DNA of 64,000 nucleotides from Friedmanniella luteola. GTDB taxonomy: Bacteria; Actinomycetota; Actinomycetes; Propionibacteriales; Propionibacteriaceae. Below the pieces are notes generated by a model. It was not told the DNA's origin, made no database searches, and saw only the letters and a list, made by a program, of their open reading frames with translations. This document shows, one piece after another, positions 3,873 through 16,529 of the stretch; positions within the stretch are counted from its first letter, which is position 1; each line of letters opens with the position of its first letter. The stretch is from assembly GCF_900105065.1 (NCBI RefSeq), contig NZ_LT629749.1, forward strand, positions 1,364,001-1,428,000. Direction: 5' to 3'. The translations under genes were made by a program, and so were the position numbers.

Positions 3873-5324
3873 ATGCAGGCGTGCGCGTGGAGCGTCGCCC
3901 TGGTGGGGCTCGAGGGCAGGATCGTGGAGGTGGAGGCCGACATCGGCGCCGGGCTGCCGAGGACGGTGCTGGTGGGTCTGGCCGACACCGCCCTGTCCGA
4001 GGCCCGTGACCGGTGCAAGGCGGCGGTCGGCAACACCGGGCACACCTGGCCGGCGTCGTTGCTGACCATCAACCTGAGCCCCGCGACGCTTCCCAAGACG
4101 GGCAGCCACTACGACCTGGCCATCGTCGCGGCGGTGCTGGCCGCGGCCGAGGTGATCCCGCGGCACGAGCTCGCGGGCACGGTCCTGCTGGGCGAGCTGG
4201 GCCTCGACGGCCGGGTACGACCGGTGCGGGGGATCCTCCCGGCGGTGCTGGCGGCCGCCCAGGCCGGCTTCACCCGGGTGGTCGTGCCCGTGCGGCAGGC
4301 CGGGGAGGCGGCGCTGGTCGACGGGGTGGACGTGCTGGGCGTCGGGTCGCTCGCCCAGCTGGTCGCGCTGCTGCGCGGCGAGCCCGTGCCCGAGGCCGAA
4401 CCGGTCGAGGTGCTGGGCGAGGCACCGGCCGACCCGCGGGCGCGGCCGCTGGACCTCGCCGACGTGGTCGGGCAGGTCGAGGCGAAGTGGGCGGTCGAGG
4501 TGGCGGCCGCCGGGCGCCACCACCTGATGTTCTCGGGGCCGCCCGGGGTGGGCAAGACGATGGTCGCGGAGCGGATCCCGGGTCTGCTGCCCGACCTGAC
4601 GCTGCCCGAGGCGCTGGAGGTGTCCGCCGTGCACTCGCTGGCCGGGTTCAACCTGGCCGACGGCCTGATCACCCGGCCGCCCTACAGCGACCCGCACCAC
4701 TCCGCGTCGGTCGCCAGCATCGTCGGCGGCGGGACGCGGATGGCCAAGCCGGGCGCCATCTCCTGCGCCCACCGCGGCATCTTGTTCCTCGACGAGGCGC
4801 CGGAGTTCCCGACGCGGGTGATCGACGCCCTCCGGACGCCCCTGGAGTCGGGGACGGTGACGCTCGGCCGCAGCGAGGTGCAGGCCCGCTACCCGGCCCG
4901 GTTCCAGCTGGTGATGGCGTCGAACCCCTGCCCGTGCGGGCAGGCGGCGACCCCGGGGGCGCACTGCTCGTGCCCCCCGCAGGCGGTGCGGCGCTACGCC
5001 GAGCGGATCTCCGGGCCGATCAAGGACCGGATCGACATCTCGTGCCTGTTCCTGCCCCTCCGCAGGGCCTACCTGGCGGCAGCACTGCAGCGGACCGAGT
5101 CCTCGGCGGTGGTCGGCGAGCGGGTCCGGCAGGCGCGGGAGCGGCAGGAGCGGCGGCTGCGGGGGACGGGCTGGCAGACCAACGGTGAGGTGTCGGGGCC
5201 GTTCCTGCGGCGGCAGCTGCCGCTGCCGGAGGGCCTGCAGGTGGTCGAGAACGCGGTGAGCCGGGGGCGGCTGAGCCCGCGGGGCGTGGACAAGGTGCTG
5301 CGGGTAGCGTGGGCTGTAAAGTAG
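3873..5324 (+). CDS. yifB: YifB/ComM-type AAA+ ATPase, 5' portion truncated by element insertion
   Basis: The family start, MQACAWSVALVGLEG, fixes ATG 3873. An N-terminal Lon-like fold is followed by a Mg-chelatase AAA+ domain with Walker A GPPGVGKTM near residue 225, Walker B ILFLDEAPEF near 305, and a C-rich loop CPCGQ...HCSCPP near 355-370. ComM/YifB proteins are hexameric helicases that act with DprA and RecA in strand exchange during natural transformation. Here residues 1-477 are host sequence. At 5304 the reading frame enters the integrated element and ends after six residues, VAWAVK, instead of the native 37-residue tail found at 15285. The first three foreign residues, VAW, copy the native ones. 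The product (483 aa) lacks its last C-terminal helices and may be impaired. Confidence 0.93.
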   Translation: MQACAWSVALVGLEGRIVEVEADIGAGLPRTVLVGLADTALSEARDRCKAAVGNTGHTWPASLLTINLSPATLPKTGSHYDLAIVAAVLAAAEVIPRHELAGTVLLGELGLDGRVRPVRGILPAVLAAAQAGFTRVVVPVRQAGEAALVDGVDVLGVGSLAQLVALLRGEPVPEAEPVEVLGEAPADPRARPLDLADVVGQVEAKWAVEVAAAGRHHLMFSGPPGVGKTMVAERIPGLLPDLTLPEALEVSAVHSLAGFNLADGLITRPPYSDPHHSASVASIVGGGTRMAKPGAISCAHRGILFLDEAPEFPTRVIDALRTPLESGTVTLGRSEVQARYPARFQLVMASNPCPCGQAATPGAHCSCPPQAVRRYAERISGPIKDRIDISCLFLPLRRAYLAAALQRTESSAVVGERVRQARERQERRLRGTGWQTNGEVSGPFLRRQLPLPEGLQVVENAVSRGRLSPRGVDKVLRVAWAVK

Positions 5325-5327
5325 CAC
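5282..5327 (+). other. attL (left junction of the element)
   Basis: The left half (to 5303) is the yifB coding sequence and the right half, from GT 5304-5305, is the element arm AGCGTGGG followed by spacer and TAGC. The arm mirrors the element side of attR. Confidence 0.8.
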
Positions 5328-5329
5328 AT

Positions 5330-6715
5330 GTGCAGAGCATCATCTACGCCCGAATCAGCAAGGACCGCGACGGCGAAGGTCTTGGGGTCGCTCGGCAAGA
5401 AGCGGACGCTCGGGCCCTTGCCCAGCAGCGCGGATGGGAGGTGCTGGACACTGTCGTGGACAACGACACCTCTGCCGCTGGCCGCCGGCCGCGCGCCGGG
5501 TTCGAGTTGGTACTGGAAGCGATCGAGTCGGGCAGAGCTCAGGTTGTGATCGCCTGGGCCCTTGACCGGCTTACGAGGAACCGTCGAGACACGGTGCGTC
5601 TCATCGAGGCTTGTCAGCGCCACGGAGCGACGATCGCCCTCGTCCGGGGTTCGGATCTGGACATGGCAACGCCGGCAGGGCGCTTGACGGCTGACTTGCT
5701 TGCCGCTGTGGCCCGTTCGGAGATCGAGGTGAAGTCTGATCGACAGGCCCGAGCCGCACTCCAGGCCGCCGAGCAGGGCCGGTGGGTTGGTGGCCGCCGG
5801 CCCTTCGGCTACGAGGCGGACGGCATGACCGTCCGCGAAGCTGAGGCGAAGTGCGTCCGAGACGCCTACACAAGCCTCCTCGATGGAATCAGCCTTCGCC
5901 AGATCGCTTACCGGTGGAACGAGGCTGGCATGTTGCCGCCGCAGGGCTCCCGCGATGGCAGCACATCGCGCTGGACAGGATCGGTCGTGTCGCGCTGCCT
6001 CAGGAAGCCGCGCTACGCCGGGCTCTCATCGCGGCGCGGCGAGGTGCTGGGCGTGGCTCAGTGGCCCGCCCTGGTCGACGCAGACACCTGGCACGCCGCC
6101 CAGGCAATGATGCGGAACCCGAGTCGCACGCCCACGCGAGGTGATCAGCGGATGCTCAGTGGACTTGCCCTGTGCGGCACTTGCGGAGCGACCGTGCACG
6201 CTGGCGGCGGCGCCACGGGGCGCGGCGTGTACCGGTGCAGCGTGGGCTCGCACGTCGTGCGGCGGCGAGCACCGATCGACGAGCTGATCAGCGCTGTGGT
6301 GGTTGAGCGCTTGGGCCGCCCAGACGCTGGCAGGATCTTCGCGGCCCGTGCGGCGGGCGTCGGCGCCGCGGAGCTGCTACGGGAGGCCGAGGAGCTTCGG
6401 CAGCGCCTTGACGGGCTCAGCGAGGGCTACGCAGACGGCGCGCTCACCTTGAGTCAGCTGCGGAAGGGCACCGACCGTCTTCGTGGCCGCCTGGAGGAGG
6501 TTGAAAAGCGGATCGCGGCGACTGGGAGCGGCCCGAGCGCCGATCTTCGGAACCTCCTCACCGCGACCGAGGTGGGCGAGGTGTGGGACTCGCTCGACGT
6601 CGCCGGGAGGCGATCGGTGATCGAACAGCTGATGACGATCACGCTGTACCCGCCAGGCCGCGGTGTCACTGTCTTGCGGCCGGAGCATGTACGGATCGAC
6701 TGGAGAACGTCCTGA
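5330..6715 (+). CDS. int: large serine recombinase (integrase)
   Basis: 461 aa from GTG 5330. The N-terminal resolvase domain has YARISKD with the catalytic Ser at about residue 10, the arginine-rich DRLTRNRRD near 80, and the helix-E-like ARSEIEVKSDRQARA near 125. A recombinase domain begins with GRRPFGYE near 157. A zinc ribbon follows (CGTCG near 287, then YRCSVGSH near 305), then a coiled coil (about 340-395). This is the phiC31/Bxb1 type, which integrates between short non-identical attP and attB sites without host factors. The frame is open upstream to GTG 5309, inside the att arm, but 5330 puts the first strand at the usual distance. It begins just after the truncated yifB stop, so host transcription may drive it in the integrated state. 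Confidence 0.93.
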   Translation: MQSIIYARISKDRDGEGLGVARQEADARALAQQRGWEVLDTVVDNDTSAAGRRPRAGFELVLEAIESGRAQVVIAWALDRLTRNRRDTVRLIEACQRHGATIALVRGSDLDMATPAGRLTADLLAAVARSEIEVKSDRQARAALQAAEQGRWVGGRRPFGYEADGMTVREAEAKCVRDAYTSLLDGISLRQIAYRWNEAGMLPPQGSRDGSTSRWTGSVVSRCLRKPRYAGLSSRRGEVLGVAQWPALVDADTWHAAQAMMRNPSRTPTRGDQRMLSGLALCGTCGATVHAGGGATGRGVYRCSVGSHVVRRRAPIDELISAVVVERLGRPDAGRIFAARAAGVGAAELLREAEELRQRLDGLSEGYADGALTLSQLRKGTDRLRGRLEEVEKRIAATGSGPSADLRNLLTATEVGEVWDSLDVAGRRSVIEQLMTITLYPPGRGVTVLRPEHVRIDWRTS

Positions 6716-6744
6716 GGCCGGCCGGCCGCCCGATCCAGAGACAG

Positions 6745-6760
6745 GTAACAAGTTTGTTAC
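6745..6760. promoter_or_regulatory. perfect palindrome, candidate operator
   Basis: GTAACAA-GT-TTGTTAC has two perfect 7-base arms around GT. It lies 30 bases after the integrase stop and about 170 bases before the excisionase-like gene, in the A+T-richest part of the gap. The arms are too close together for a hairpin terminator, so a dimeric repressor site is more likely. The binding protein is unknown; the HTH proteins at 6928 or 14283 are candidates. Confidence 0.45.
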
Positions 6761-6927
6761 AGACTGCGGTCGAGATTGGGCTGAGTTAAGGCACAGTTTG
6801 GCATCAATAGACCCCATAACGCTACCTGCTGAGCGTCACTGCCTAAACATGCACACCTGAGATCCGTCAGAAGTGCACTTAGCCTTTCTTTCGTCGAGGT
6901 CATGGGACCTCTCGGGAGGAAGCTGGC

Positions 6928-7119
6928 ATGTCAGACCGCAGATTGGACTCCATCCAGGCCGCCGCAGAGGCGGCGAAGGTTTCGCCGATCACCATTCGCC
7001 GCCGCATCGCGAGCGGCGACCTCGCGGCTTATCGATTCGGGCCACGCATTATCCGGGTTGACCTGAATCAAGTGGACGCGCTATTCACGCAGATTCCGAC
7101 CGGCGGGAATGCTGCGTGA
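6928..7119 (+). CDS. excisionase-like helix-turn-helix protein
   Basis: 63 aa, ATG with a good ribosome site (GGGAGGAAG). The sequence SIQAAAEAAKVSPITIRRRIASGDLAAYRFGPRIIRVDLNQVDALF is a complete winged-helix of the excisionase/MerR-like type: helix-turn-helix with ITIRRRI as recognition helix, then the wing RFGPRIIRV. Such small proteins act as recombination directionality factors or repressors in actinobacterial integrative elements. Position after the integrase supports that role; serine-integrase directionality factors are diverse, so the assignment is inference. It is the first gene of a rightward run with stop/start overlaps. Confidence 0.75.
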   Translation: MSDRRLDSIQAAAEAAKVSPITIRRRIASGDLAAYRFGPRIIRVDLNQVDALFTQIPTGGNAA

Positions 7120-7298
7120 ACCCGAACAGGGGCCGCGCGACGCGCCTGCCATCCAGGCGTGAAGCAGAAGTCGACGCCATCGCGCTCGTCGTCGAGAAGG
7201 TTCTCAGCACCGCGCCGCTGCTCACGGACGAGCAGTGCGACCGGATCGCAGCTGCGCTTCGGTCAGGCGACGCTGAGCACAGGCGGGCAGCCGCATGA
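7116..7298 (+). CDS. small hypothetical protein
   Basis: 60 aa. GTG 7116 overlaps the stop of the HTH gene (GTGA), which supports translation by coupling. Residues 17-55 form one amphipathic, charged helical region (EAEVDAIALVVEKVLSTAPLL onwards, with DEQCDRIAAAL). Similar short proteins are common near replication genes of actinophages, but I recognise no domain. Its frame is kept by GTGA and ATGA overlaps at both ends. Confidence 0.6.
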   Translation: MNPNRGRATRLPSRREAEVDAIALVVEKVLSTAPLLTDEQCDRIAAALRSGDAEHRRAAA

Positions 7299-7588
7299 GC
7301 CGGAGAACGCGAAGAGGACGCCCCAGCCAGGTAGCACCCTCCGTCAAGCTCGCAGCAGCGAGCCTTGCGCCCATCGACCCTCGGGACGAGGTCGCCCAGC
7401 ACGTCGATGGCACCTTCGTGATCGTCGTAGAGATCTCTGCCGGCCGCTTCCGTCGGCGCTGCTTCCTGACCGCGGCCGCCGCAGAGCGGGCCGTCAATCG
7501 AGCGCATTGTGCCGGTCAGAGCAGCACCGTCTACCTCGCTGAGCTCAAGCCCTTATGGCGCATGAACGCAGGCCAGGCGGCGTCGTGA
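7295..7588 (+). CDS. small hypothetical protein
   Basis: 97 aa, ATG overlapping the previous stop by four bases. The N-terminus is Arg-rich (MSRRTRRGRPSQ). A compact alpha/beta body follows: GTFVIVVEISAGRFRRRCFLTAAAAERAVNRAHCAGQSSTVYLAELKPLWRM is strand-strand-helix-strand in appearance. There are no catalytic motifs. It is bounded by overlaps on both sides, so it belongs to the same operon as the zinc-binding and replication-like genes that follow. Confidence 0.6.
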   Translation: MSRRTRRGRPSQVAPSVKLAAASLAPIDPRDEVAQHVDGTFVIVVEISAGRFRRRCFLTAAAAERAVNRAHCAGQSSTVYLAELKPLWRMNAGQAAS

Positions 7589-7791
7589 TGGCCAGCGCGT
7601 GGCACGGCAAGGAATGCACACCGCGTTGCGAAGAACTTGCCGTCCAAGTGACTCTGACCGGTCCGCGGGCTGTCCCGTGCCCGTACTGCTCCGCAACGCC
7701 TGGTCGGGGATGCAAGATCGTCGGGCCCGCCCCGGTTCCCCTGGTGCGCTTCGGGCAGTATCACCCCTCACGCCTTGAGTCAGCCGCGTGA
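7588..7791 (+). CDS. phage-type small zinc-binding protein
   Basis: 67 aa, ATG 7588 overlapping the previous stop. It has CPYC (Cys31, Cys34), then GRGC (Cys42) and FGQYHPSR (His59), a C-x2-C-x7-C...H-x2-R arrangement seen in small zinc-binding proteins of actinobacteriophages; Cys10 and Cys14 may add to the site. Probable role is nucleic-acid or protein binding in an element replication operon. An upstream start (7555) in the same frame would overlap its neighbour further and has no better ribosome site. Confidence 0.6.
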   Translation: MASAWHGKECTPRCEELAVQVTLTGPRAVPCPYCSATPGRGCKIVGPAPVPLVRFGQYHPSRLESAA

Positions 7792-8468
7792 GCTACATCA
7801 AGTTCGAGGCCCGGCACCTCGAGGACGACCGGTGGCTTGACGTGTCGCCGGCGGCGTTCGTGGTGCACGTCTGGGCACTGTCGTACTGCAACGAACAAGC
7901 CACCGACGGGGCAATCAGTCGAGCTCGTGCGAGCCGCCTGGTCTGTCCCGTAGACCCTGCTCAGATCGCCCCGGCGTGGTCCGAGCTGGTCGACTCTGGC
8001 CTCTGGCGAGTCACCGACGACGGGTACCACTGCGACACCTTCACGGCACACGGCATCGCTGCGGACGAGCAGCACAAGACTCGCGCGCGGTGGTCGGAAG
8101 ACAAGCGGCGGCAACGGCTGCACCGCAACGGAAACCACTCAATCTGCTCTGAGAGAACCTGTCCCGTAGCGCCAATGTCCACTGAGGACTCCGCAGGAGA
8201 CTCCACTGCAGACAAGTGGACGACTAGACCCGACCCGACTAGACCCGACCCGACCCAACCCGAAGGGTTGGGGAAGGGGTCGGGGGCAGGGCGGTCATCG
8301 TCCTCCGCTGGAGCTCCGGGCGATGCCGCGCCCCCGGTGACGGACAAGCACCACCATCGCCCCGGTTGCTGCCTATTCGCCGACTTCCCGCACAACCGCC
8401 ATCACTACAAGCCGGACGAGTGCCCAGGTTGCGCTGAGCCTCAGCACCAGGTCTCGGGCGCCGCCTGA
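7788..8468 (+). CDS. replication-initiation-like protein
   Basis: 226 aa, GTG 7788 overlapping the previous stop. Residues 1-110 read as a winged-helix of the kind at the N-terminus of DnaD-like phage replisome organisers: LDVSPAAFVVHVWALSYCNEQATDGAIS, then IAPAWSELVDSGLWRVTDDGYHC. A basic stretch follows (KTRARWSEDKRRQRLHR). Residues about 146-158 are a Pro-Asp-Pro-Thr-Arg repeat coded by a GACCC-rich microsatellite (8222-8264), then a Gly/Ser linker, then a His/Cys-rich tail (HHHRPGCCLF...CPGCAEP). It probably binds the element's origin and recruits host helicase; no helicase or primase is encoded nearby. Confidence 0.55.
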   Translation: MSYIKFEARHLEDDRWLDVSPAAFVVHVWALSYCNEQATDGAISRARASRLVCPVDPAQIAPAWSELVDSGLWRVTDDGYHCDTFTAHGIAADEQHKTRARWSEDKRRQRLHRNGNHSICSERTCPVAPMSTEDSAGDSTADKWTTRPDPTRPDPTQPEGLGKGSGAGRSSSSAGAPGDAAPPVTDKHHHRPGCCLFADFPHNRHHYKPDECPGCAEPQHQVSGAA

Positions 8469-8734
8469 TGGACGCCCTCGAAAAGCTGACCCGCGCTCTT
8501 GTCCAGCTCGCAAGCAGAGGGGATCGGCCGCGGTGCGGGGACCCGGTGACCCGCGACTACTGGACCTCCGACAACAACCAGGAGCGCAAGCACGCCGCCG
8601 CTTGGTGTGCGGGCTGCCCCGTGTTGAACCTGTGTTCAGCAGCCGCCGACGAGACCTCAGAGCGCTTCGGAGTTTGGGCCGGCGTCGATCGGACTCCGCG
8701 GCCGCGACCCGAGAGTCGGAAGGCATCAGCGTGA
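8468..8734 (+). CDS. WhiB-like iron-sulfur regulator
   Basis: 88 aa, ATG 8468 sharing one base with the previous stop. It has the Wbl cysteine pattern: Cys23, then Cys47-x2-Cys50-x5-Cys56, followed by the turn GVWAG at 68-72 (family consensus G[VI]WGG) and a basic tail (RTPRPRPESRK). Wbl proteins carry a [4Fe-4S] cluster and bind sigma-A region 4 to change promoter choice; phage and plasmid versions can interfere with host Wbl proteins. Its place in a replication-type operon, ahead of the phosphatase-domain gene it overlaps, suggests control of element or host transcription. Confidence 0.82.
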   Translation: MDALEKLTRALVQLASRGDRPRCGDPVTRDYWTSDNNQERKHAAAWCAGCPVLNLCSAAADETSERFGVWAGVDRTPRPRPESRKASA

Positions 8735-10146
8735 CCCCGGATGTCACCGCCTACCGCATCGAGGGCAACCTCCCGGCTGGCTACACCCCGACCGGCCGCT
8801 TCTCGGTCCCTCTGATGAGTCACGTGGCCGACGGCCTCTGGATCGGCGGGTTCGTCGCCGGAGCCAAGCTGCCCGAGGACTTCGACCTCGTCATCTCGTT
8901 CCACCGGCAGCGGCAGTACGTCCTGGGCGCCAGCACGGAACTGGTCGAGATGCCGGCCGAAGACTCGCTGTCACAAGACCCGCAGGTCTTCCGAGACGCC
9001 GCCGCCCTCGTGGCGCAACGTGTCGCCCAAGGCCAGAAGGTGCTCGTCCACTGCCACGCCGGTCTCAACCGGTCCGGGCTCACTGCAGCACTCGCCCTGG
9101 TCGAGCTCGGCCACACCGCGCCGGCCGCCCTCCAGCTGCTGCGCGAGAAGCGGAGCCCCTACGTCCTTTGCAATCCGGCTTTCAAGGCGGCACTCCTCCT
9201 CGGTGACCGTGCCCCCGAGCCGAAGGCGCCGGCAGCCAAGCGGCCAGACACCGCCGGCGATCCATCGAACGCTGACCTGCTCGACTTCGCTTTCGCCGTG
9301 CGTCAAGCAGATGCCCCGCTGCGGGAGTCCAAGACTGAGCGCGCCGGGCAGGTCGATCTGTGGCGTCTCTACTGGCTCCATCGCGGACGCCTCGCCTCCC
9401 CCTTCGTCGGAGCCCTCGAGCCCCTCCCAACGCACGCGCAGGCCGGCTGCAGCTATGACCGGATGCCCGGACGAGGAGGAACCCTGGCGGTGCACCCAGA
9501 CGCCGACATCCCCGCGCTGAACTGCCAGTGCGGCTGGCGCGGAGCGGACAACGTCGAGGCGCTCGCAGCTGCAGGCGAACACATGCGCACCTCCCCGCAC
9601 GCCTTCCTGCCGATCGTCAACCACATCCAGGACAACTTCGACAGCGTCGACGACTTCAACGACCGCCGAGACGCGCTGTTGGCTGGCGGCGAGCGGCACG
9701 GCTACCACATCCTCCCGGTGCCAGCGCTCGTCCGAGTCACCGCACACGACGCCATCCGCGACGACAGAATCAGCCGCCGCACAGCCTTCCTCGCCACGCC
9801 AGCCGGACAGAGAGTCACCGCCCACTTCCGAGCCCTCGGCACCGCACCAGCCGAGCTGTTCAACGGCGTTCCGGAGGGGCCCGGCATGTGGCGCGCACGC
9901 TCGCTCACCATCACCGGCCCGGTCATCACCGGCCCCACCGAGTACGCACTCCCGAACCCGCGAGACCTGGCCCGTCACTACGGGGTGAAGTACGTCGACG
10001 TCTCGGCCAGCCTTAAAGGCGCCAACTTCAGCGACGCTCTCGCGATTGCCGCCGCCGGCGCACTTCCGGCGGTCGCGATGAACCCGCGCTCCCCACACCA
10101 CCACCTCACGAAGAACGCAGCGCGACCCGGGGCCCGACCCCCTTGA
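8731..10146 (+). CDS. dual-specificity-phosphatase-domain fusion protein
   Basis: 471 aa from GTG 8731, which overlaps the whiB-like stop (GTGA). Residues about 27-145 resemble a dual-specificity/tyrosine phosphatase: VADGLWIGGFVAG, LVISFHR, then Asp79 (EDSLSQD) as possible general acid and the P-loop VLVHCHAGLNRSG with nucleophile Cys108 and Arg114 (C-x5-R). The remaining 300 residues match nothing I know. They include RLYWLHRGRL (about 215), a Cys pair in NCQCGWRG (about 268) and an acidic helix-rich region. The substrate could be a host phosphoprotein, a nucleotide or RNA end; the C-terminal part would give the specificity. An open frame continues upstream, but it is antisense-like in composition and overlaps whiB fully. 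Confidence 0.72.
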   Translation: MTPDVTAYRIEGNLPAGYTPTGRFSVPLMSHVADGLWIGGFVAGAKLPEDFDLVISFHRQRQYVLGASTELVEMPAEDSLSQDPQVFRDAAALVAQRVAQGQKVLVHCHAGLNRSGLTAALALVELGHTAPAALQLLREKRSPYVLCNPAFKAALLLGDRAPEPKAPAAKRPDTAGDPSNADLLDFAFAVRQADAPLRESKTERAGQVDLWRLYWLHRGRLASPFVGALEPLPTHAQAGCSYDRMPGRGGTLAVHPDADIPALNCQCGWRGADNVEALAAAGEHMRTSPHAFLPIVNHIQDNFDSVDDFNDRRDALLAGGERHGYHILPVPALVRVTAHDAIRDDRISRRTAFLATPAGQRVTAHFRALGTAPAELFNGVPEGPGMWRARSLTITGPVITGPTEYALPNPRDLARHYGVKYVDVSASLKGANFSDALAIAAAGALPAVAMNPRSPHHHLTKNAARPGARPP

Positions 10147-10171
10147 GGTCGCCCGCCGGACCCGCCAGTGA
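10125..10171 (+). repeat. 47-bp intergenic repeat, copy 1
   Basis: Copy 1 of three. It opens with ACCCGGGGCCC, passes a C5 run and ends in CCCGCCAGTGA at 10161-10171. It overlaps the end of the phosphatase-domain gene and lies just before the gene at 10215. Confidence 0.65.
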
Positions 10172-10214
10172 CGCCCACATACTCACCAACCTAAGAGCCC
10201 AAGAAGAGGACCTC

Positions 10215-10463
10215 ATGCCCAACTTCGACAGCCCGACCAATCGCACCATGAAGGAGCGCCTCGCCCGTGGCGGGCCCTTCCGCCGAAGCGAGGAAAAGGA
10301 GGCGCTCCTGCAGATGCGAGAGGAGCGACCGACCGAGTTTGCTGCCCTGCCACCCGGCGTGCACATCGCTGTTGGCCTGTACGAGGCCGACCTCGCTACC
10401 CACCAGCAGCTCCACCAGACCGACCCCACCAGCTACGAGCAGATCACCGGAGGAGCACCGTGA
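10215..10463 (+). CDS. small hypothetical protein
   Basis: 82 aa, ATG 10215 after an AAGAAGAGGA ribosome site. Sequence is hydrophilic: MPNFDSPTNRTMKERLARG, then a charged helix (RRSEEKEALLQMREERPTEF), then VHIAVGLYEADLATHQQL. No family is recognised. The stop is overlapped by the next gene (GTGA). It is preceded by repeat copy 1, which may carry its promoter. Confidence 0.6.
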   Translation: MPNFDSPTNRTMKERLARGGPFRRSEEKEALLQMREERPTEFAALPPGVHIAVGLYEADLATHQQLHQTDPTSYEQITGGAP

Positions 10464-10927
10464 CCACCACCGACCTCACCGACCTCGAGGCCAAGGCAGC
10501 CCGGCTGCTGGCCCAGCACGAGAAGGCCCAGGCCGCCGCTCAGGCCGCGCGCGACGAGGAGCTGCAGCGCCAGACCGAGCGCGCCAGGCAGCTCGACCAG
10601 GACACGGTCAACGCCTACTCCGAGACCGACCACGCCGGCGCCATCACCGCGGCCGGACAACAGCTGGTCCAAGCCGTCGCCGGCAGTGACATCGGGCAGG
10701 CCTGGGTCGCCTACCAGGCGGCTCAGCTGCGACAGGCGCACGCCGCCGCCGACGCCAGCGGCGCAGCATCACGCCTCGGCCTCGCGCCCATCCCCTCTCG
10801 GCCTGCCAACAACGCGGCCGCGACAGTGCTGGCCAAAGCCGTCGACCAGCTCGCACGCAACCTCGTCGCTGACGAGCTCGATCAGCGAGACCAGGACCGA
10901 GCAGCCCGCATCGAGGCCAAGGGCTGA
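10460..10927 (+). CDS. alanine/glutamine-rich coiled-coil protein
   Basis: 155 aa, GTG overlapping the previous stop. Residues 8-50 (LEAKAARLLAQHEKAQAAAQ and on through DEELQRQTERARQLDQDT) are a strongly predicted coiled coil, and residues 55-100 continue as Ala/Gln-rich helices. The C-terminus is charged (DELDQRDQDRAARIEAKG). It has no cysteines, signal peptide or membrane segment. Function unknown; such proteins in mobile elements may be scaffold-like or partition partners, but nothing here proves it. Confidence 0.6.
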   Translation: MTTTDLTDLEAKAARLLAQHEKAQAAAQAARDEELQRQTERARQLDQDTVNAYSETDHAGAITAAGQQLVQAVAGSDIGQAWVAYQAAQLRQAHAAADASGAASRLGLAPIPSRPANNAAATVLAKAVDQLARNLVADELDQRDQDRAARIEAKG

Positions 10928-11075
10928 CCCCAAGACCGAGGCGACGTTCCGGCGTTAACGTCACCGGCCCCGAGTCCATAGCGGGCGGGAAACCGGATCG
11001 AAGGGGGGAGCGAGTCGAGACATCATCCTCGCGTTGATCCTTCTGCGTCGGACGTCGCCTCACTTCGCAGCGCGC

Positions 11076-11122
11076 CCCCGGGTCCCAACCCCCTCAGGTC
11101 CACGCGTCTCACCCGCCAGTGA
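11076..11122 (+). repeat. 47-bp intergenic repeat, copy 2
   Basis: Copy 2 ends with CCCGCCAGTGA at 11112-11122 and aligns to copies 1 and 3 without gaps. It is followed within a few bases by a T7 run. Confidence 0.65.
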
Positions 11123-11244
11123 TTCCTTTTTTTCAGACGGGCGTAGGGGGGTTCCTGTGATTGGCGGCGGACGCCTCCTCGGCCAACCCGTCCTAGTTTC
11201 TGCTCGCACACTCGATGGCGCCTCGTGCCTGACCCCGTTCGGTC

Positions 11245-11291
11245 ACCCGGGGCCCCACCCCCAAGGCGCCGCGCAGCTCACCCGCCAGTGA
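11245..11291 (+). repeat. 47-bp intergenic repeat, copy 3
   Basis: Copy 3 ends with CCCGCCAGTGA at 11281-11291. It shares ACCCGGGGCCC at its left end with copy 1 and CTCACCCGCCAGTGA at its right end with copy 2. Its final GTG (11288) is in frame with the gene ending at 11884. Confidence 0.65.
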
Positions 11292-11404
11292 CGCTCATCT
11301 CTCTGAAACTTTTCTCCACGAGGGCGCTTTGGGCTACCGGATCCCTCTGTGGCCGGCGGGCGGAATCGCCATGCTGGGCGCAGGCGCGTCGGGGACGTTG
11401 GGTT

Positions 11405-11884
11405 GTGCTGCTGTCGGAGTCGCTCGAGCACGCGGAGGCTGCCGGCGTCCGGGCAACCATCCATCAGCATCTTGGACGGCCGCCGACGCGTGCCGAGATG
11501 AACGCCGCCCGCCGGGCTGCCTACCAGTTGGTGGAGGAGGGTGCGGCGGAGGTGGCCCACAGCAAGGTGGGATCAGAAGGACTGCACGTCGCCAACTACC
11601 TGATCCTCGTCCGGCCCGGCCTTCACGTCGACGACGAAGCGCTGCGCCTGGCGGCGATCGGCCGGACCTCGTTCCCTGGTGCGCTTGAGGAGCAGCGCCA
11701 TCAGAGCGTTGGGCGAACCGAGGGAACGGTGGTTCTTGCAGCGGAGGCGGCCGAGCTCGCCCGCCAGGTGCAGGTCGAGCTTCTGAGACCCGACCAAGCC
11801 GCCGCTGCCGAGCAACGGTTGACCGTCGCCCTTGAGGAGCTTCGCCTGCTGCGCAGCCGGCTTAGGCGTCAGAAGGGCACCTAG
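11405..11884 (+). CDS. hypothetical helical protein
   Basis: 159 aa from GTG 11405, preceded by GGGGACG. The same frame is open to GTG 11288 inside repeat copy 3, so a longer form is possible. Residues 1-60 (LSESLEHAEAAGVRATIHQHLG, PPTRAEMNAARRAAYQLVEEG) look like helix-turn-helix-type helices followed by strands (GLHVANYLILVRPGLHV). Residues 105-155 are a coiled coil (AEAAELARQVQVELL to LEELRLLRSRLRR). No known family; possibly DNA-binding. It ends before a run of separately expressed small genes. Confidence 0.5.
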   Translation: MLLSESLEHAEAAGVRATIHQHLGRPPTRAEMNAARRAAYQLVEEGAAEVAHSKVGSEGLHVANYLILVRPGLHVDDEALRLAAIGRTSFPGALEEQRHQSVGRTEGTVVLAAEAAELARQVQVELLRPDQAAAAEQRLTVALEELRLLRSRLRRQKGT

Positions 11885-11939
11885 CGTGTTAGTCGCTCAT
11901 GCCCTGACCAGACATCGAACACCTGTTCTAATCTGAGCC

Positions 11940-12203
11940 GTGGGTCAGAACCGGAAGGATCGAGAGTGGCCGCGGCCTCGCTCGACCCGGTTTGTTTGGG
12001 TGGCTCAATCCGGGCCTCAAGTGCCGCCGCTCCAAGGGCTCGTCCTCGACTGGCGCCGCAGCTCCTACCGCTGGTCCGCGCTGGTCGCCACGGTGCGTCT
12101 GGACGAGGAAGGTCGGCCGCTCGTGCAACACGAGTGGGTGCCGGCGGAACGTCTGCGGCCAGTGCGGGCGGATCCGAACGGTCGGAAGCTAGGCGACTAC
12201 TGA
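11940..12203 (+). CDS. small basic hypothetical protein
   Basis: 87 aa from GTG 11940. A -10-like TAATCT (11929-11934) lies so close to the start that the message may be leaderless. The product is Arg-rich, with a strand-forming middle (TRFVWVAQSG, GLVLDWRRSSYRWSALVATVRL) and HEWVPAERLRPVRADPNGR at the end. The pattern resembles short phage-type proteins with one small beta sheet; no domain is recognised. The call rests on codon use and start context only. Confidence 0.4.
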   Translation: MGQNRKDREWPRPRSTRFVWVAQSGPQVPPLQGLVLDWRRSSYRWSALVATVRLDEEGRPLVQHEWVPAERLRPVRADPNGRKLGDY

Positions 12204-12313
12204 GCCCGGGGACCACGGACGCGCGTGCTAGGGGGCATGCGCATACGCGATAAGCGCGCCAAGAGCGACAGCGCTACGCAGCAACCGACCCTAGTTTGGC
12301 CACTCCGGGCAAT

Positions 12314-12356
12314 CTGTCTATCCCACTTGACTTGATACTGTCTATCACACTAGACT
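12314..12356 (+). promoter_or_regulatory. hicAB promoter with two 19-bp direct repeats
   Basis: CTGTCTATC-C-CACT-T-GACT (12314-12332) and CTGTCTATC-A-CACT-A-GACT (12338-12356) differ at two positions and repeat every 24 bases. TTGACT (12327-12332) and TAGACT (12351-12356), 18 bases apart, are plausible -35 and -10 hexamers, one inside each repeat. The ATG of hicA follows six bases later, so the transcript would be leaderless or nearly so. The repeats are the obvious binding sites for HicB. Confidence 0.65.
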
Positions 12357-12362
12357 AAAATC

Positions 12363-12554
12363 ATGGTCAGTGAGCAGCCCACCCGGACGGTCCTCAAGTT
12401 GCTCCGCAGCGAGGGCTTCGAGCCGCAGCGCACGGTGGGCAGCCACACGTGGTGGACCAAGGGCAACGTCGGGGTGCCGGTGCCGGACGGGCACCGGACC
12501 ATCTCGCCGGGTGTCTACCGCAAGATCCTGAAGGCGATCGAGGAGGCGAAGTGA
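12363..12554 (+). CDS. hicA: HicA-type mRNA interferase toxin
   Basis: 63 aa. The sequence TVLKLLRSEGFEPQRTVGSHTWWTKGNVGVPVPDGHRTISPGVYRKILKAI is the compact double-stranded-RNA-binding fold of HicA, with the catalytic histidine at about residue 28 in GSHTWW and the conserved end GVYRKILKAIE. HicA cleaves mRNA and tmRNA and is neutralised by HicB. Gene order toxin-antitoxin and a four-base overlap (GTGA) with hicB are typical. In a mobile element it would stabilise inheritance or act against phage. Confidence 0.88.
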   Translation: MVSEQPTRTVLKLLRSEGFEPQRTVGSHTWWTKGNVGVPVPDGHRTISPGVYRKILKAIEEAK

Positions 12555-12925
12555 AGTACCAGGTGAACGTCACCCGCGACGGGCGCTGGTGGATGCTCGA
12601 GGTCCCTGACCTCGACGTGACCAGCCAGGCCCGCCGGCTCGGCGAGGTCGAGCAAATGGCCCGCGAGGCGATCGCTGTCACCACCGACGCTCCGGTCGAC
12701 GGCGTGCAAGTGGAGCTACGCCTCCCAGACCTCGGGCTCGTGAAGGCATCGCGCTTGGCCGACCTGTACCGCGAGCGAGCCGAGATCGCCGAGCGTGAGG
12801 TCCGCCTCGCTGCCGAGACCCGCGATGTCGCTGTGGGCCTGGTCGACGCCGGCGTGCCACTCCGCGATGTCGGTGAGATCCTCGGCGTCTCGCACCAGCG
12901 GGTGCACCAGCTGGTCAACCAGTGA
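12551..12925 (+). CDS. hicB: HicB-type antitoxin
   Basis: 124 aa from GTG 12551, overlapping the hicA stop. The N-terminal half (MKYQVNVTRDGRWWMLEVPD, then LGEVEQMAREAIAV) is the partly degraded RNase H-like fold of HicB. The C-terminal part has a helix-turn-helix (AGVPLRDVGEILGVSHQRVHQL, about 97-122) for autoregulation. The stretch between (LADLYRERAEIAEREVRLAAE) is a helical linker. It should bind HicA and, as a complex, the paired repeats upstream of hicA. Confidence 0.85.
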   Translation: MKYQVNVTRDGRWWMLEVPDLDVTSQARRLGEVEQMAREAIAVTTDAPVDGVQVELRLPDLGLVKASRLADLYRERAEIAEREVRLAAETRDVAVGLVDAGVPLRDVGEILGVSHQRVHQLVNQ

Positions 12926-12927
12926 AT

Positions 12928-13134
12928 CTACCTGCTGCGCAATGCTTCGCGCTTGGTGAGGTGAGTGGCGCCGATGTAGGAAGCGATGACAGACGGGACC
13001 AGGATCAGGGCGTTCAGCCCGCGGTCTGCGATCAGCCAGTACGCGAACACCCCCGAGGCGAGGCCGATCAGCAGGAGGACGAGGCCCGCTGCGTCCAGGC
13101 GGCGCTGTGAGCGCTGACTATGCGTCATCGTCAT
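12928..13134 (-). CDS. small two-helix membrane protein
   Basis: 68 aa from ATG 13134, overlapping the end of the 300-aa gene by 17 bases in another frame, so translation is probably coupled. After a basic start (MTMTHSQRSQRRLD), TM1 covers about residues 15-37 (AAGLVLLLIGLASGVFAYWL) and TM2 about 41-60 (LNALILVPSVIASYIGATHL), and the tail is basic (TKREALRSR). Both ends are probably cytoplasmic. Small proteins like this next to a larger soluble partner are often membrane effectors or anchors. No family is recognised. It converges on hicB with a two-base gap. Confidence 0.65.
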   Translation of the reverse strand: MTMTHSQRSQRRLDAAGLVLLLIGLASGVFAYWLIADRGLNALILVPSVIASYIGATHLTKREALRSR

Positions 13135-14020
13135 GTGCAGCCCTCCTGAAGCTCTCGACCTTGAGGACCGTCCAGGTTCGTGTGGTCCGCCCGTTCTTCT
13201 CGACCGTGTCCTCGCGCACCTGCAGTCGGAAGATGTCAGTCTTGCGGATCGCCAAGCCGTTCGCGACACGCGCGAGGAAGTCCTCGTCCTCGACGATAGC
13301 CGCCCGGCTAGCCTCCTTGGTTCTGACTCTCCACTTCCTGGGGTTGTCGAAGTCGATGGCCGCCATCTGGGCCTCCGTCTCGAAGATGTTCTGCTGCTCG
13401 GTGACCTCTTCGTCCGCCCGTGTGGCGTCGTAGTCGGGCTTCGTCAGCTCGAAGGGTTCAGGCTGGTCGCTGGTGTCTGCGTCTGCGTCTGCCGGGGGGT
13501 TTTCGATCGCCACTGATGCCACGCGCGGGTCGCTCAACGGGGCCAGGATCTTCCGAAGGTGCCGCTTCCGGGGCTTGTCCCGCTTCTGCAGCTCGACCCA
13601 GGCTGCCTGCGGGATCTCCGCGGCCGTGTTGTCCTGCCAGGTGACCTTGACGTTGCCGTTCTCGAGGTAATCGAAGTCGGCGACACCGGCCCGGACTGAC
13701 TTCGTCGACCACCAGATGATGGAGCTCAGCGAGGGCACGCCGACGGCTCCGCCCGCTGCTTCGGGGTTCTCCTGCACGATCCTCAGGACCTCGATCAGGA
13801 AGGAGCCTTCGCGCGCTGGCCTGACCAGGACCTCCGAGCCGGCCGCCCCTTCTCCGAAGACGCCGGCCTTCGCGAACTCGCCGTTCAGTCCGACGAGGCC
13901 CTGCAGCACTTCGGCGACGTGAGAGGCTCGGAGCTCCTGCACCTCGGAGCCGTCCTCCTCCTTGCCCTCGAAGCGGAGGGTAAGGGTCTCTACAACGCCG
14001 GTAGCCGGCTCCGTTGCCAT
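13118..14020 (-). CDS. 300-aa protein of unknown function, partner of the membrane protein
   Basis: 300 aa from ATG 14020. The N-terminal domain (about 5-110) reads ETLTLRFEGKEEDGSEVQ, ELRASHVAEVLQGLVGLNGEF, then VLVRPAREGSFLIEVLRIVQ: strand, helix, and a strand pair around GSF. I have seen this layout in uncharacterised bacterial proteins found near defence or mobile genes. A short hydrophobic segment follows (SSIIWWSTKSVRAGVADF, about 103-120). The C-terminal domain (about 175-295), after an acidic linker, is strand-rich with RKWRVRTKEASRAAIVEDEDFLARVANG and ends RTWTVLKVESF. No catalytic triad, nuclease or NTPase motif is visible. The frame is open further upstream across an HTH remnant, but this ATG begins the recognisable domain. 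Confidence 0.65.
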   Translation of the reverse strand: MATEPATGVVETLTLRFEGKEEDGSEVQELRASHVAEVLQGLVGLNGEFAKAGVFGEGAAGSEVLVRPAREGSFLIEVLRIVQENPEAAGGAVGVPSLSSIIWWSTKSVRAGVADFDYLENGNVKVTWQDNTAAEIPQAAWVELQKRDKPRKRHLRKILAPLSDPRVASVAIENPPADADADTSDQPEPFELTKPDYDATRADEEVTEQQNIFETEAQMAAIDFDNPRKWRVRTKEASRAAIVEDEDFLARVANGLAIRKTDIFRLQVREDTVEKNGRTTRTWTVLKVESFRRAAHDDDA

Positions 14021-14080
14021 GGTCGAGGAACCTACATGACGGCACCGACGGTGCTCAGGCGGTGCGGGTCTTCTCCCGTG

Positions 14081-14227
14081 GTCGACCTCGTACAGCTTCC
14101 CGGCGCGGGCTGTTGCGCCGGACGGGCATGAACGGGCCCTCGGCCCCCAGTTGTAAAGGGCGCGGAACGGGATGGCGAGGAGCCAGTGGAGCTGGCGGAG
14201 GGTGAGGGGCGGCTGGGTCAGGGCCAT
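14081..14227 (-). pseudogene. remnant of an excisionase-type HTH gene
   Basis: From ATG 14227 the frame reads ALTQPPLTLRQLHWLLAIPFRALYNW, a clear start of an excisionase-like helix-turn-helix. The expected wing (EGPFMPVRR) appears next, but in another frame, and the first frame resumes with KLYEVDHGRRP. Two small indels therefore seem to have broken the gene. It runs without a stop into the 300-aa gene. It could instead be a rebuilt N-terminal extension of that gene. Confidence 0.35.
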
Positions 14228-14282
14228 GCGGCGGAACTCGGCTTCCTGGACGGTGTTGCCGCGCGGTCCTTGTCGTGGTCGC

Positions 14283-14795
14283 TTAGCCGGTCACCCTTCG
14301 TGGTGGCCGGCCAGCGCCGGGAGCGCTCTTTCTGCGCTGTCGCATGCACGATCCGCACGCGGGGAGCATCCGCAGCTGGTCCTCCGTGGCTGCCTCAAAC
14401 TGGTGGGTCGTCTGCCGATCCCACCGCTTGAAGTGCAGGCAGTCGAGATCATGACGAATCAGCGGGGGCTGGTCGAGCATTCTGGTCCCGTCGTCGCGCA
14501 GGCGCCAGACCACGTGGGAGATCTCCGGATATGCGCCAGGCTCGGAGACGAGGCGCTTCGATGGGCGTTGCACTGCACTACCCCGTAGCGGAGTGCCGAC
14601 CGGCTCAGACCAGGTGAGTCGGGACTGCTCAAACTCCTCCACGTCTCGTCGCGAGACGCGGTACCGGGGCTTGCGACTGCTGCCGAAGTTCACCGCCCTG
14701 AGCTCGCCGCGCCTGATGAGCGTCCGCACGAACCTCGGCGGAACTTGCCAGGACTGAGCGACGTCCTCAGTTGTGAACCACTGCTCCGCCGGCAC
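14283..14795 (-). CDS. helix-turn-helix DNA-binding protein
   Basis: 170 aa from GTG 14795, ten bases after the upstream stop with GAGCGGTGAGG as ribosome site. Residues 4-60 (QWFTTEDVAQSWQVPPRFVRTLIRRGELRAVNFG then RKPRYRVSRRDVEEFEQ) are a winged helix of the excisionase type. The other 110 residues contain a His/Cys-rich part (IRHDLDCLHFKRWDR, then LPACGSCMRQRRK) that could bind zinc. It may be the element's repressor or directionality factor; position at the right end and leftward direction, opposite to the replication operon, suit a repressor. Confidence 0.65.
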   Translation of the reverse strand: MPAEQWFTTEDVAQSWQVPPRFVRTLIRRGELRAVNFGSSRKPRYRVSRRDVEEFEQSRLTWSEPVGTPLRGSAVQRPSKRLVSEPGAYPEISHVVWRLRDDGTRMLDQPPLIRHDLDCLHFKRWDRQTTHQFEAATEDQLRMLPACGSCMRQRRKSAPGAGRPPRRVTG

Positions 14796-14805
14796 CGCTA
14801 CCGCC

Positions 14806-15159
14806 TCACCGCTCGGGCTCGCTGGGCACCTCAAAGCCGTCCAGCAGCTTCTCCAGCTGGCGCGCACTGCGCCTGGCCCACCGGCGCAGCGGCTCTTCGA
14901 TCGGACTGTCGTCTGCCTCGCCATCACCGGGCTCCAAGGCGGCAGGGTTGGCGGTCTTCGCCGCTACAGCGTAGGCGACGTCGAAGAGGAGTCCGGTGAG
15001 GTACTTCTCCCGGGAGCGGTCGCGCACGTGGGAGCCGATGTGCGGATCGCGGATGATCCCGGCCCCGCGGGCGATGCTCTCCGCCCCGTCGGCGTCGATC
15101 CACCGGGTTTCCAGCTTGGCGCCGAGTTCGAACAGGGCGCGGAACATAGTCTCGTCCAT
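14806..15159 (-). CDS. hypothetical protein at right end of element
   Basis: 117 aa, ATG 15159 with an AAGGAG-like site (CAAAACAAGGAGTC). Mostly helical and acidic: DETMFRALFELGAKLETRWID, then GIIRDPHIGSHVRDRSREKYLTGLLFDVAYAVA, then an acidic linker (EPGDGEADDSPIEE) and RRWARRSARQLEKLLDGF. No domain recognised. It starts the leftward operon that includes the HTH gene, and its promoter must lie in the 120 bases before attR. Confidence 0.6.
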   Translation of the reverse strand: MDETMFRALFELGAKLETRWIDADGAESIARGAGIIRDPHIGSHVRDRSREKYLTGLLFDVAYAVAAKTANPAALEPGDGEADDSPIEEPLRRWARRSARQLEKLLDGFEVPSEPER

Positions 15160-15260
15160 GGGTCTGACTCCTTGTTTTGGAAGGGGTGGGATCTAGGCCT
15201 CGGTCGGTGCTCCAACACCGCCCGAGGCCGTTCTGTCTCTAGCCGCAGGACGGTAGACCT

Positions 15261-15304
15261 ACGCTAGTTCGTTTCCCACGCTGTGGCCTGGACGCTGGCC
15301 GACC
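15261..15304 (+). other. attR (right junction of the element)
   Basis: The element arm GCTA...CCCACGCT (15263-15282) precedes GT 15283-15284, after which the yifB reading frame resumes with GTG-GCC-TGG. Joining this arm to the attL arm gives CCCACGCT-GT-AGCGTGGG, a perfect palindrome. Confidence 0.8.
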
Positions 15305-15396
15305 TGGCCGGCCGCGACCGGCCGGGGAGCGACGAGGTGGCGGTCGCGCTGGCGATGCGTCGGGGCGAGCAGCTGGACCGGACGGAGGCGGGCTGA
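15285..15396 (+). pseudogene. yifB: yifB 3' fragment separated by the element
   Basis: From GT 15283 the frame reads VAWTLADLAGRDRPGSDEVAVA and ends at TGA 15394-15396. This is the family's C-terminal tail (AWTLADL.G...), the last helices of the Mg-chelatase C-terminal domain. With codons 1-477 from the left side it makes a 514-residue protein of normal length. It has no start of its own. The stop shares one base with the dprA start, the arrangement of an intact yifB-dprA operon. Confidence 0.9.
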
Positions 15397-16529
15397 TGTG
15401 GTCGGAGAAGCGGGCGCGGATGGCGCTCTCGTGCGCCGTGGACGGCGGCGAGCCGGAGGCGGCCCGGCTGCTGGCCCGGGTCGGGGCCCAGGGCGCCTGG
15501 GCGAAGATCGCCGAGGGCGCGCTGGGCGAGCCGCTGGCCCGCCGGGCCGCCGCGACGGACGTCGACGTGGTCGAGCGGCTGGGCGCCCGGGTGGGAGCAC
15601 GGTTCGTCGTCCCGGGGGAGGAGGAGTGGGTCCCGGGGCTGGACGACCTGGCGCACGTCGACCCGATCCAGCGACGGGGCGGGGTGCCGTTCGGGCTGTG
15701 GCTCCGCGGGCCGGGTCACCTGCCCGCGCTGGCGGCCCGCTCGGTGGCGGTGGTCGGCTCGCGGGCGGCGACGGCCTACGGCTCGGGGATCGCGACCGAC
15801 CTGGCGGCCGAGCTGGCCGAGCACGGCGTGACGGTGGTGTCGGGGATGGCGTTCGGGATCGACGCCGCCGCCCACCGCGGGGCCCTGGCGGCGGACGGCC
15901 CGACGGTGGCGGTGGTCGCCAACGGTGTCGACGTCGTCTACCCGCCCGGGAACACCGCGCTGTTCGAGGCGGTCGCGAAGGAGCACCTCGTGGCGTCGGA
16001 GCTGCCCCCGGGTGCCCACCCGACCCGGGTCCGCTTCCTCGCCCGGAACCGGCTCATCGCCGCGCTCGCGGGCGGCACCGTCGTCGTGGAGGCGGCGTTG
16101 CGCTCTGGGGCCCGGAACACGGCCGGCTGGGCGCTGGAGTGCGGTCGTCCGCTGATGGCGGTGCCCGGGCCGGTCCACTCCCGGGCCTCGACGGCACCGC
16201 ACCTGATGATCCGCAACGGCCAGGCGACCCTGGTCACCTGCGCCGCGGAGGTGCTGGAGCTGGTCACCGGGCTCGGGGAGCACCCGGTCTCGCCCGGGGT
16301 GACGCCGCAACGGGCGACCGATGCGCTGACCGAGGATCAGCTGGCGGTCTTCGAGGCCACCCCGGCCCGGCGCCGGGTGTCGTCCGGTGAGATCGCGCTG
16401 GCCGCGGGCGTCCCCGTGCCGTCCTGCCTCGCCGCGCTGCACGTGCTCGAGGGCCTCGGCCTGGTCGAGGCGGGCGACCAGGGCTGGCGGGCCGTCCCGC
16501 ACCGGGCGATGCTGCCGGCACCGGCGTGA
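15396..16529 (+). CDS. dprA: DNA-processing protein DprA
   Basis: 377 aa from ATG 15396, overlapping the yifB stop by one base. The Rossmann-like DprA domain has SVAVVGSRAATAYGSGIATDL near residue 112, GMAFGIDAAAHRGAL near 151, GVDVVYPPGN near 178, and FLARNRLIAALAGGTVVVEA near 212. A winged-helix tail lies near 320-365 (VSSGEIALAAGVPVPSCLAALHVLEGLGLV). DprA binds single-stranded DNA and loads RecA during transformation. Element insertion puts about 10 kb between it and the yifB promoter, so its transcription may now depend on promoters inside the element, whose right-end genes run the other way. Confidence 0.95.
   Translation: MWSEKRARMALSCAVDGGEPEAARLLARVGAQGAWAKIAEGALGEPLARRAAATDVDVVERLGARVGARFVVPGEEEWVPGLDDLAHVDPIQRRGGVPFGLWLRGPGHLPALAARSVAVVGSRAATAYGSGIATDLAAELAEHGVTVVSGMAFGIDAAAHRGALAADGPTVAVVANGVDVVYPPGNTALFEAVAKEHLVASELPPGAHPTRVRFLARNRLIAALAGGTVVVEAALRSGARNTAGWALECGRPLMAVPGPVHSRASTAPHLMIRNGQATLVTCAAEVLELVTGLGEHPVSPGVTPQRATDALTEDQLAVFEATPARRRVSSGEIALAAGVPVPSCLAALHVLEGLGLVEAGDQGWRAVPHRAMLPAPA

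What the first reader, a model, noticed from the sequence alone, without database searches (positions are those of the whole stretch)
5304..15284. A compact 10-kb serine-integrase island that splits yifB/comM next to dprA
Seen: the two yifB pieces rejoin to a normal 514-aa frame with the native one-base overlap to dprA. Known: YifB/ComM and DprA act in natural transformation and recombination, and comM-type genes are recurrent insertion sites for mobile elements. Inference: insertion trims YifB's last 37 residues and separates dprA from its operon promoter, so the element could lower the host's uptake of DNA that would remove it or bring rivals.
Basis: partly seen in the sequence, partly recalled or inferred. 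Interest (0 to 1): 0.72.

Follow-up and report, generated by a model that had tools for sequence, protein, structure and literature searches.

The report
Defence-carrying integrase island in yifB
A 10-kb mobile island has inserted itself near the end of a DNA-recombination gene (yifB/comM) in a probable actinobacterium and carries a likely anti-phage gene pair; the insertion is real, but this gene is already known as a frequent landing site for such islands.

Summary
A 9,979-bp island with one large serine integrase splits yifB (comM) just upstream of dprA. Congener G018 has the uninterrupted site: a 514-aa YifB, 96% identical, with the same one-base overlap to dprA. That comparison puts the junction at a shared TGG (5310-5312 / 15289-15291), so 34 residues are lost, not 37. 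All 19 other congeners searched are unsplit here; in the family sample 1 of 143 genomes with a match is split here, ours.

Seven of those elements were partly scanned; all seven have head, packaging or tail genes. Ours has no convincing one, but has HicAB and a homologue of the MichelleMyBell gp29-gp30 defence pair (55% and 50% identity). I read it as a satellite-like or reduced prophage-like island carrying defence.

Lowered DNA uptake is plausible (comEC and a comEA-like gene present; Acinetobacter precedent) but untested. Serine integrases in this gene and defence islands in comM are both published. Ordinary kind, useful new member.

The parts
3873..5324 (+). truncated yifB/comM (480 native residues + AVK, stop supplied by the island)
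   Evidence: Pfam ChlI, Mg_chelatase, Mg_chelatase_C (positions 2-73 of 94)
5310..5312 (.). TGG shared by attL and attR (attL side)
5313..15291 (.). integrated island, 9,979 bp
   Evidence: empty site in G018/L065
5330..6715 (+). large serine integrase, GTG start 5 nt after the yifB stop
   Evidence: (Resolvase 3.9e-29, Recombinase 9.4e-14, phrog_95 3e-97)
6928..7119 (+). small HTH_17 protein, candidate excision or regulatory factor (role inferred)
   Evidence: E about 3e-4, below the Pfam cut-off
7555..7791 (+). phage zinc-finger-like small protein
   Evidence: PF24623 1e-8
7788..8468 (+). replication-initiation-like protein
   Evidence: phrog_2447 1.9e-12, phrog_3926 2.8e-10
8468..8734 (+). 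WhiB-like regulator
   Evidence: PF02467 1.2e-10
8731..10146 (+). dual-specificity phosphatase domain with a tail of about 315 aa of unknown role
10215..10927 (+). two small ORFs without a significant family match
12363..12554 (+). HicA toxin
   Evidence: (PF07927 6.3e-10)
12551..12925 (+). HicB-like antitoxin with HTH
   Evidence: phrog_8245 5.1e-33
12928..13134 (-). gp30-like small membrane protein (31 of 62 aligned residues identical to MichelleMyBell gp30)
13118..14020 (-). gp29-like protein (167 of 302 aligned columns identical to MichelleMyBell gp29; start codon unsure), overlaps the gp30-like ORF by 17 nt
14283..14927 (-). HTH_17 regulator / excisionase-like
14806..15159 (-). ORF without match
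15289..15291 (.). TGG, attR side
15292..15396 (+). 3' remnant of yifB (34 residues and stop); an in-frame GTG at 15283 lies just inside the island
15396..16529 (+). dprA, open over its length, one-base overlap with the yifB stop

Best explanation
A compact phage-related integrative island. Shown by sequence: it lies between two TGG copies in yifB, a congener has the uninterrupted site, it has one open large serine integrase at its left end, and it carries a homologue of the MichelleMyBell gp29-gp30 defence pair plus HicAB. Inferred: the integrase recombined attP (right end joined to left end) with the attB in yifB; one of the small HTH proteins directs excision; the replication-initiator-like protein amplifies the excised form; spread depends on another phage's particles (satellite-like), because I found no convincing structural, packaging, conjugation or relaxase gene, while related yifB elements do have head or tail genes; and it persists through integration, toxin-antitoxin addiction and protection of its host from other phages. 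Loss of YifB's last 34 residues, and the distance between dprA and its old promoter, follow from site choice; whether they benefit the island is open.
For: Empty site and intact 514-aa YifB in G018; one integrase match at 1e-40 in the genome; family hits for integrase, Rep, WhiB, phosphatase, HicAB; gp29/gp30 homology, order and overlap, MichelleMyBell's system being described as typical of abortive infection (PMC6426606, passage) and MMB_gp29_gp30 as a defence pair (PMC11856565, passage); same-codon elements L025, L029, L107, L108 and other yifB positions in L109, L110, L111 and L075; head, packaging or tail genes in L025, L029, L107, L108, L109, L110, L075 (only part of their ORFs scanned).
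Against: No convincing capsid or packaging gene in our island (the one such PHROG match, terminase small subunit at E 0.059, falls on the HTH of the HicB-like protein), so 'satellite' rests on its relatives and on gaps; it may be a decayed prophage. Apart from the integrase, only one 39-aa match is shared with the other yifB elements. Own integrase groups most closely with one (L066) that has no yifB beside it. Excision, mobility and defence were not observed.
Confidence: 0.62

Rival explanations
1. Decayed prophage: a remnant of a former phage that kept integrase, early genes and accessory genes after losing its virion genes; no longer mobile.
For: No convincing structural gene among the 18 island ORFs scanned, while the related yifB elements scanned have some; WhiB, phosphatase and zinc-finger genes occur in actinophages.
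Against: Integrase frame open, ends exact, size close to the 8.7-10.9 kb of L025, L029, L109 and L075. Other frames were not tested for decay.
Confidence: 0.25
2. Anti-competence island: its site is selected because breaking YifB (and separating dprA) lowers recombination that would remove it.
For: Integrases from separate parts of the tree hit three different positions of one gene; host has comEC and a comEA-like gene; Acinetobacter precedent (PMC11472951, passages).
Against: The gene is a common serine-integrase target in general (12.4% of predicted site-specific integrases, PMC10083194, passage); transformation of this host is unknown; ComM loss has little effect on transformation with identical DNA in V. 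cholerae, according to PMC11472951.
Confidence: 0.2
3. Neutral site choice: yifB is hit only because its sequence is conserved and its loss is cheap; no effect on competence is selected.
For: In the family sample only 1 of 143 genomes with a match is split here; 24 of the 30 class loci with a related integrase show no yifB beside it in the stretch held.
Against: Does not by itself explain why several integrase groups use different positions in this same gene.
Confidence: 0.55

Closest known systems
Large serine recombinases that target the magnesium chelatase/ATP-dependent protease gene (PMC10083194; passages seen)
   Same: Same integrase class and same target gene
   Different: I did not map our codon onto their attB list; their genome set differs
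comM-interrupting islands of Acinetobacter baumannii, AbaR and defence-bearing elements (PMC11472951; passages seen)
   Same: Interrupted comM, in part with defence cargo
   Different: AbaR are Tn7-like and break the Mg-chelatase domain; ours is a serine-integrase island at the C-terminal end
Candidate PICIs and prophage-like elements of Mycobacterium, incl. phiRv1 (PMC10654092; passages seen; the ~10-kb size of phiRv1 is recalled)
   Same: Compact integrase elements; several yifB relatives here keep capsid genes
   Different: Their candidates were defined by integration genes plus a capsid gene; none recognised in ours
MichelleMyBell gp29-gp30 defence pair (PMC6426606, PMC11856565; passages seen)
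   Same: Gene pair, order, overlap, 55% and 50% identity, small membrane partner
   Different: Sits in a 10-kb island, not in a MichelleMyBell-type phage genome; reads opposite to the integrase
HicAB toxin-antitoxin
   Same: HicA domain and HicB-like partner adjacent
   Different: Not studied further

Membership tests
Large serine integrase element | Resolvase + Recombinase domain integrase next to an att end | tested here: met
Large serine integrase element | precise empty site in a relative and short core shared by both ends | tested here: met
Large serine integrase element | excised circle with attP | not testable with these tools
   no reads
yifB/comM insertion elements | gene interrupted in this genome, intact in relatives | tested here: met
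Capsid-forming satellite (candidate PICI as defined in PMC10654092) | integrase plus major capsid gene | tested here: not met
   18 island ORFs against PHROGs at E up to 1 and two longer reading frames at 0.001: no head or tail match; one weak terminase-small-subunit match (E 0.059) on the HicB-like HTH
PICI (helper-dependent, no own capsid) | induction and packaging by a helper phage | not testable with these tools
   experiment needed
Integrative conjugative/mobilizable element | relaxase or conjugation/FtsK-type transfer gene | tested here: not met
   no such Pfam match in the 18 island ORFs scanned
MMB gp29-gp30 defence system | gp29 homologue followed by overlapping small membrane gp30 homologue | tested here: met
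MMB gp29-gp30 defence system | protects against phage by abortive infection | not testable with these tools
   experiment needed
Competence-disrupting element | reduced transformation caused by the insertion | not testable with these tools
   only gene presence: comEC and comEA-like, dprA

The most novel reading that the evidence does not exclude
The island uses the yifB-dprA operon as a switch. In 8 of 8 yifB insertions whose left junction could be read (three positions in the gene), the integrase reads in the same direction as yifB and starts about -4 to +23 nt from a stop supplied by the element, so integrase and downstream genes could be made from the yifB promoter and coupled to its translation. 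Excision, which restores yifB and rejoins dprA, would then respond to the conditions that switch on the recombination genes: a reversible competence lock, as proposed for comK prophages (recalled).
Probability: 0.08. Interest if true: 0.75.

Novelty: new member of a known kind. Interest (0 to 1): 0.4.

Why it matters
It adds a case of comM/yifB interruption with defence cargo, known from Acinetobacter, in a probable actinobacterium with a different integration machinery, and shows related integrases entering this one gene at three positions in several families. If breaking YifB pays, a pair of strains with and without the island would make the intragenomic-conflict idea directly testable. The placement of the integrase behind the host gene is a concrete, cheap prediction to test.

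Tried and rejected
GCTGT as the att core: a 5-bp repeat near both junctions (a 6-bp match also listed lies elsewhere), rejected by the G018 empty site. Searches used queries joined there (12 nt / 4 aa too long); the ranges reported still cross or stop at the junction, so I kept their counts. Head, packaging, tail, relaxase in our island: nothing convincing in the 18 ORFs scanned; the weak terminase-small-subunit match of the HicB-like protein (E 0.059) I take for its HTH. PADLOC: the gp29-like protein hits candidate PDC-S42 (6.8e-14), one HTH protein weakly mad1 (0.032). Viral-contig relatives of the phosphatase and of the gp29-like protein: none by that method; of the integrase: one, L075. 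Integrase in phage records: 970 matches, all under 60% identity, best listed 39.9%. Consensus promoter or terminator in 14900-15450: none, so the idea that the island donates a promoter to dprA stays unproven. Co-directional integrase as a general rule: rejected, relatives beside other genes are mixed in a rough codon-composition call. Papers: one search found none; one search gave PMC10083194; the 10 papers listed of 376 have 0 occurrences of yifB. I make no claim that this site or this combination is absent from print.
Full report
Observation. The window lies in a 4.7-Mb single-contig genome; I infer an actinobacterium from its GC, its WhiB gene and its nearest named relatives, no call names it. 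YifB is open from 3873 to a stop at 5322-5324; its last 34 codons lie at 15292-15393, and the TGA at 15394-15396 overlaps the dprA ATG by one base. GC is 74-78% in the windows next to the island and 64-70% inside; some host stretches further out also reach 69%. No tRNA is near: the two tRNAs of the window are at 29 kb and 61 kb.

Exact ends. The repeat that I used first, GCTGT, gives a 518-aa rejoined protein. The same region of congener G018 (L065) is uninterrupted and reads VLRVAWTLADLAG; the alignment shows 12 nt too many in my first join and fits a join at TGG. G018 matches the window on both sides at 81-89% DNA identity, the blocks meeting at the junction, and has no integrase match at 1e-40.

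How common. Genus: 20 genomes searched with the joined site; 17 of 19 others align across the junction, and G107 and G144 show an uninterrupted protein end, so 19 of 19 others are unsplit at this point. Family: 143 of 148 genomes have a match to the YifB end and only ours is split here; five genomes without match (G005, G015, G096, G113, G145) were not looked into, and a few hits are partial or lie on two contigs. Class: 394 genomes, 377 with YifB at 1e-60, but the match list was cut, so I give no split count.

Recurrence. Loci with a related integrase were checked for yifB: 10 of 70 loci, some of which are overlapping copies of one place, hold it; two are our own locus, eight are others. YifB similarity ends at residue ~481, as in ours, in L025 (Arthrobacter), L029 (Mycolicibacterium), L077 and L078; at ~83-85 in L082 and L084; at ~300 in L102. 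L075 has the yifB remainder (from about residue 57) at its other end; its left flank is not held. In the class sample 6 of the 30 loci returned (36 matches in 30 of 393 genomes) are beside yifB, ours included. In the family sample (21 matches in 19 of 197 genomes, loci of 1.5 kb flank) only ours is. In a tree of 48 integrases (47 chosen loci and ours) the codon-481 cases fall in two places: L029/L077/L078, and ours with L025; the latter group also holds L066 and L081, which have no yifB in the stretch held, and ours is nearest L066. So the site is old or was adopted more than once; the tree does not decide.

Junction anatomy. In the 8 yifB insertions with a readable left junction (ours, L025, L029, L077, L078, L082, L084, L102) the integrase has the direction of yifB, and the element supplies an in-frame stop within about 10 codons of the end of YifB similarity; the integrase start is about -4 to +23 nt from that stop, depending on the start codon taken for L082 and L102. 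In ours: TAG at 5322, GTG at 5330. Among integrases beside other genes the best upstream frame is on either strand (rough). Translational coupling is an inference.

Content. Integrase; HTH_17 small protein; phage zinc finger; replication-initiation-like; WhiB; dual-specificity phosphatase; HicA and HicB-like; gp30-like and gp29-like; second HTH_17; several unmatched ORFs (18 ORFs scanned; two longer frames). Phosphatase homologues in the 8 listed of 40 phage records match only about the first 156 residues. Other yifB elements (for size; for content, only part of the ORFs scanned): L025 8.7 kb (major head protein, replication initiator), L029 10.9 kb (terminase, portal, head protein), L107 17 kb (terminase, portal, head protein, tape measure), L108 17 kb (tape measure, a transposase), L109 9.5 kb (head protein at 1.2e-11, helicase/primase), L110 14.5 kb (terminase subunits), L075 about 10 kb (head protease, head protein, primase); L111 is longer than the 18 kb held and was not scanned. 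Ours shares with these eight, at 1e-3 and apart from the integrase, one 39-aa match in L108.

Defence pair. The gp29-like ORF matches 37 phage records (33 Mycobacterium, 4 Gordonia), at best 54.9% over 99%, among them MichelleMyBell gene 29, followed there by gene 30. Direct alignment gives 55.3% over 302 columns and, for the small partner, 50.0% over 62. The two ORFs overlap by 17 nt here and by 41 nt in MichelleMyBell. Literature seen as passages: MichelleMyBell's system is typical of abortive infection (PMC6426606); MMB gp29-gp30 is a toxic protein with a putative membrane protein, mechanism unknown (PMC11856565); gp29-gp30 is enriched in Actinobacteria (PMC10482375, which calls it a predicted (p)ppGpp synthetase, a label that may belong to the Phrann pair of the same gene numbers: my recall). 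The gp29-like gene also occurs on an 8.4-kb mobilizable Arthrobacter plasmid.

Effect on the host. The truncated YifB keeps ChlI, the AAA+ domain and profile positions 2-73 of 94 of the C-terminal Pfam domain; solved ComM (8rxd, 509 aa) aligns to residues 9-479. In 17 intact congener loci (of 18 tried; L053 gave no hit) mean identity to our sequence is 62% for residues 381-440, 69% for 441-480, 73% for 481-495 and 52% for 496-514 (local alignments can end early). The lost part thus begins with a well conserved stretch, so loss of function is likely but not shown. A comEC match and an HHH_3 (comEA-like) match lie about 1 kb apart. The nearest long ORF upstream of yifB is on the other strand, so I take yifB as first in its operon and dprA as cut off from that promoter by 10 kb; one search found no consensus promoter at the right end. 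An in-frame GTG at 15283 could keep a short ORF coupled to dprA; by eye L025 and L029 lack it at that place, so it may be chance.

Prior knowledge. Homologues of this gene are targeted by 12.4% of predicted site-specific serine integrases (PMC10083194, passage). comM interruption by islands, some with defence systems, and its link to low transformation is published for A. baumannii (PMC11472951, passages); the conflict theory itself is older (PMC4774983, listing and start of abstract only). The finding is therefore a new member of a known kind.

Noticed in passing
L067 (G088, same genus), integrase at 14846-13461: A related integrase element shares two small ORFs with ours (54% and 49% identity); other ORFs there look like Fic/Doc, DUF4065 and, running into the integrase, a Tad/CpaF-type ATPase (all by eye, no family search).
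   Followed up: partly
window 15283-15285: The right junction creates an in-frame GTG for the yifB remnant whose stop overlaps dprA's start.
   Followed up: partly
window 8731-10146: Phosphatase domain followed by about 315 aa without any match; the listed phage homologues match only the phosphatase part.
   Followed up: partly
L112 5666-6574: The gp29-like gene sits on an 8.4-kb mobilizable Arthrobacter plasmid; no gp30-like gene is listed beside it, but that gene table is incomplete.
   Followed up: no
L107, L108: About 17-kb yifB elements with a tape measure gene: possibly very small prophages rather than satellites.
   Followed up: no
G005: Single-contig genome of the same family without a match to the YifB C-terminal query.
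   Followed up: no
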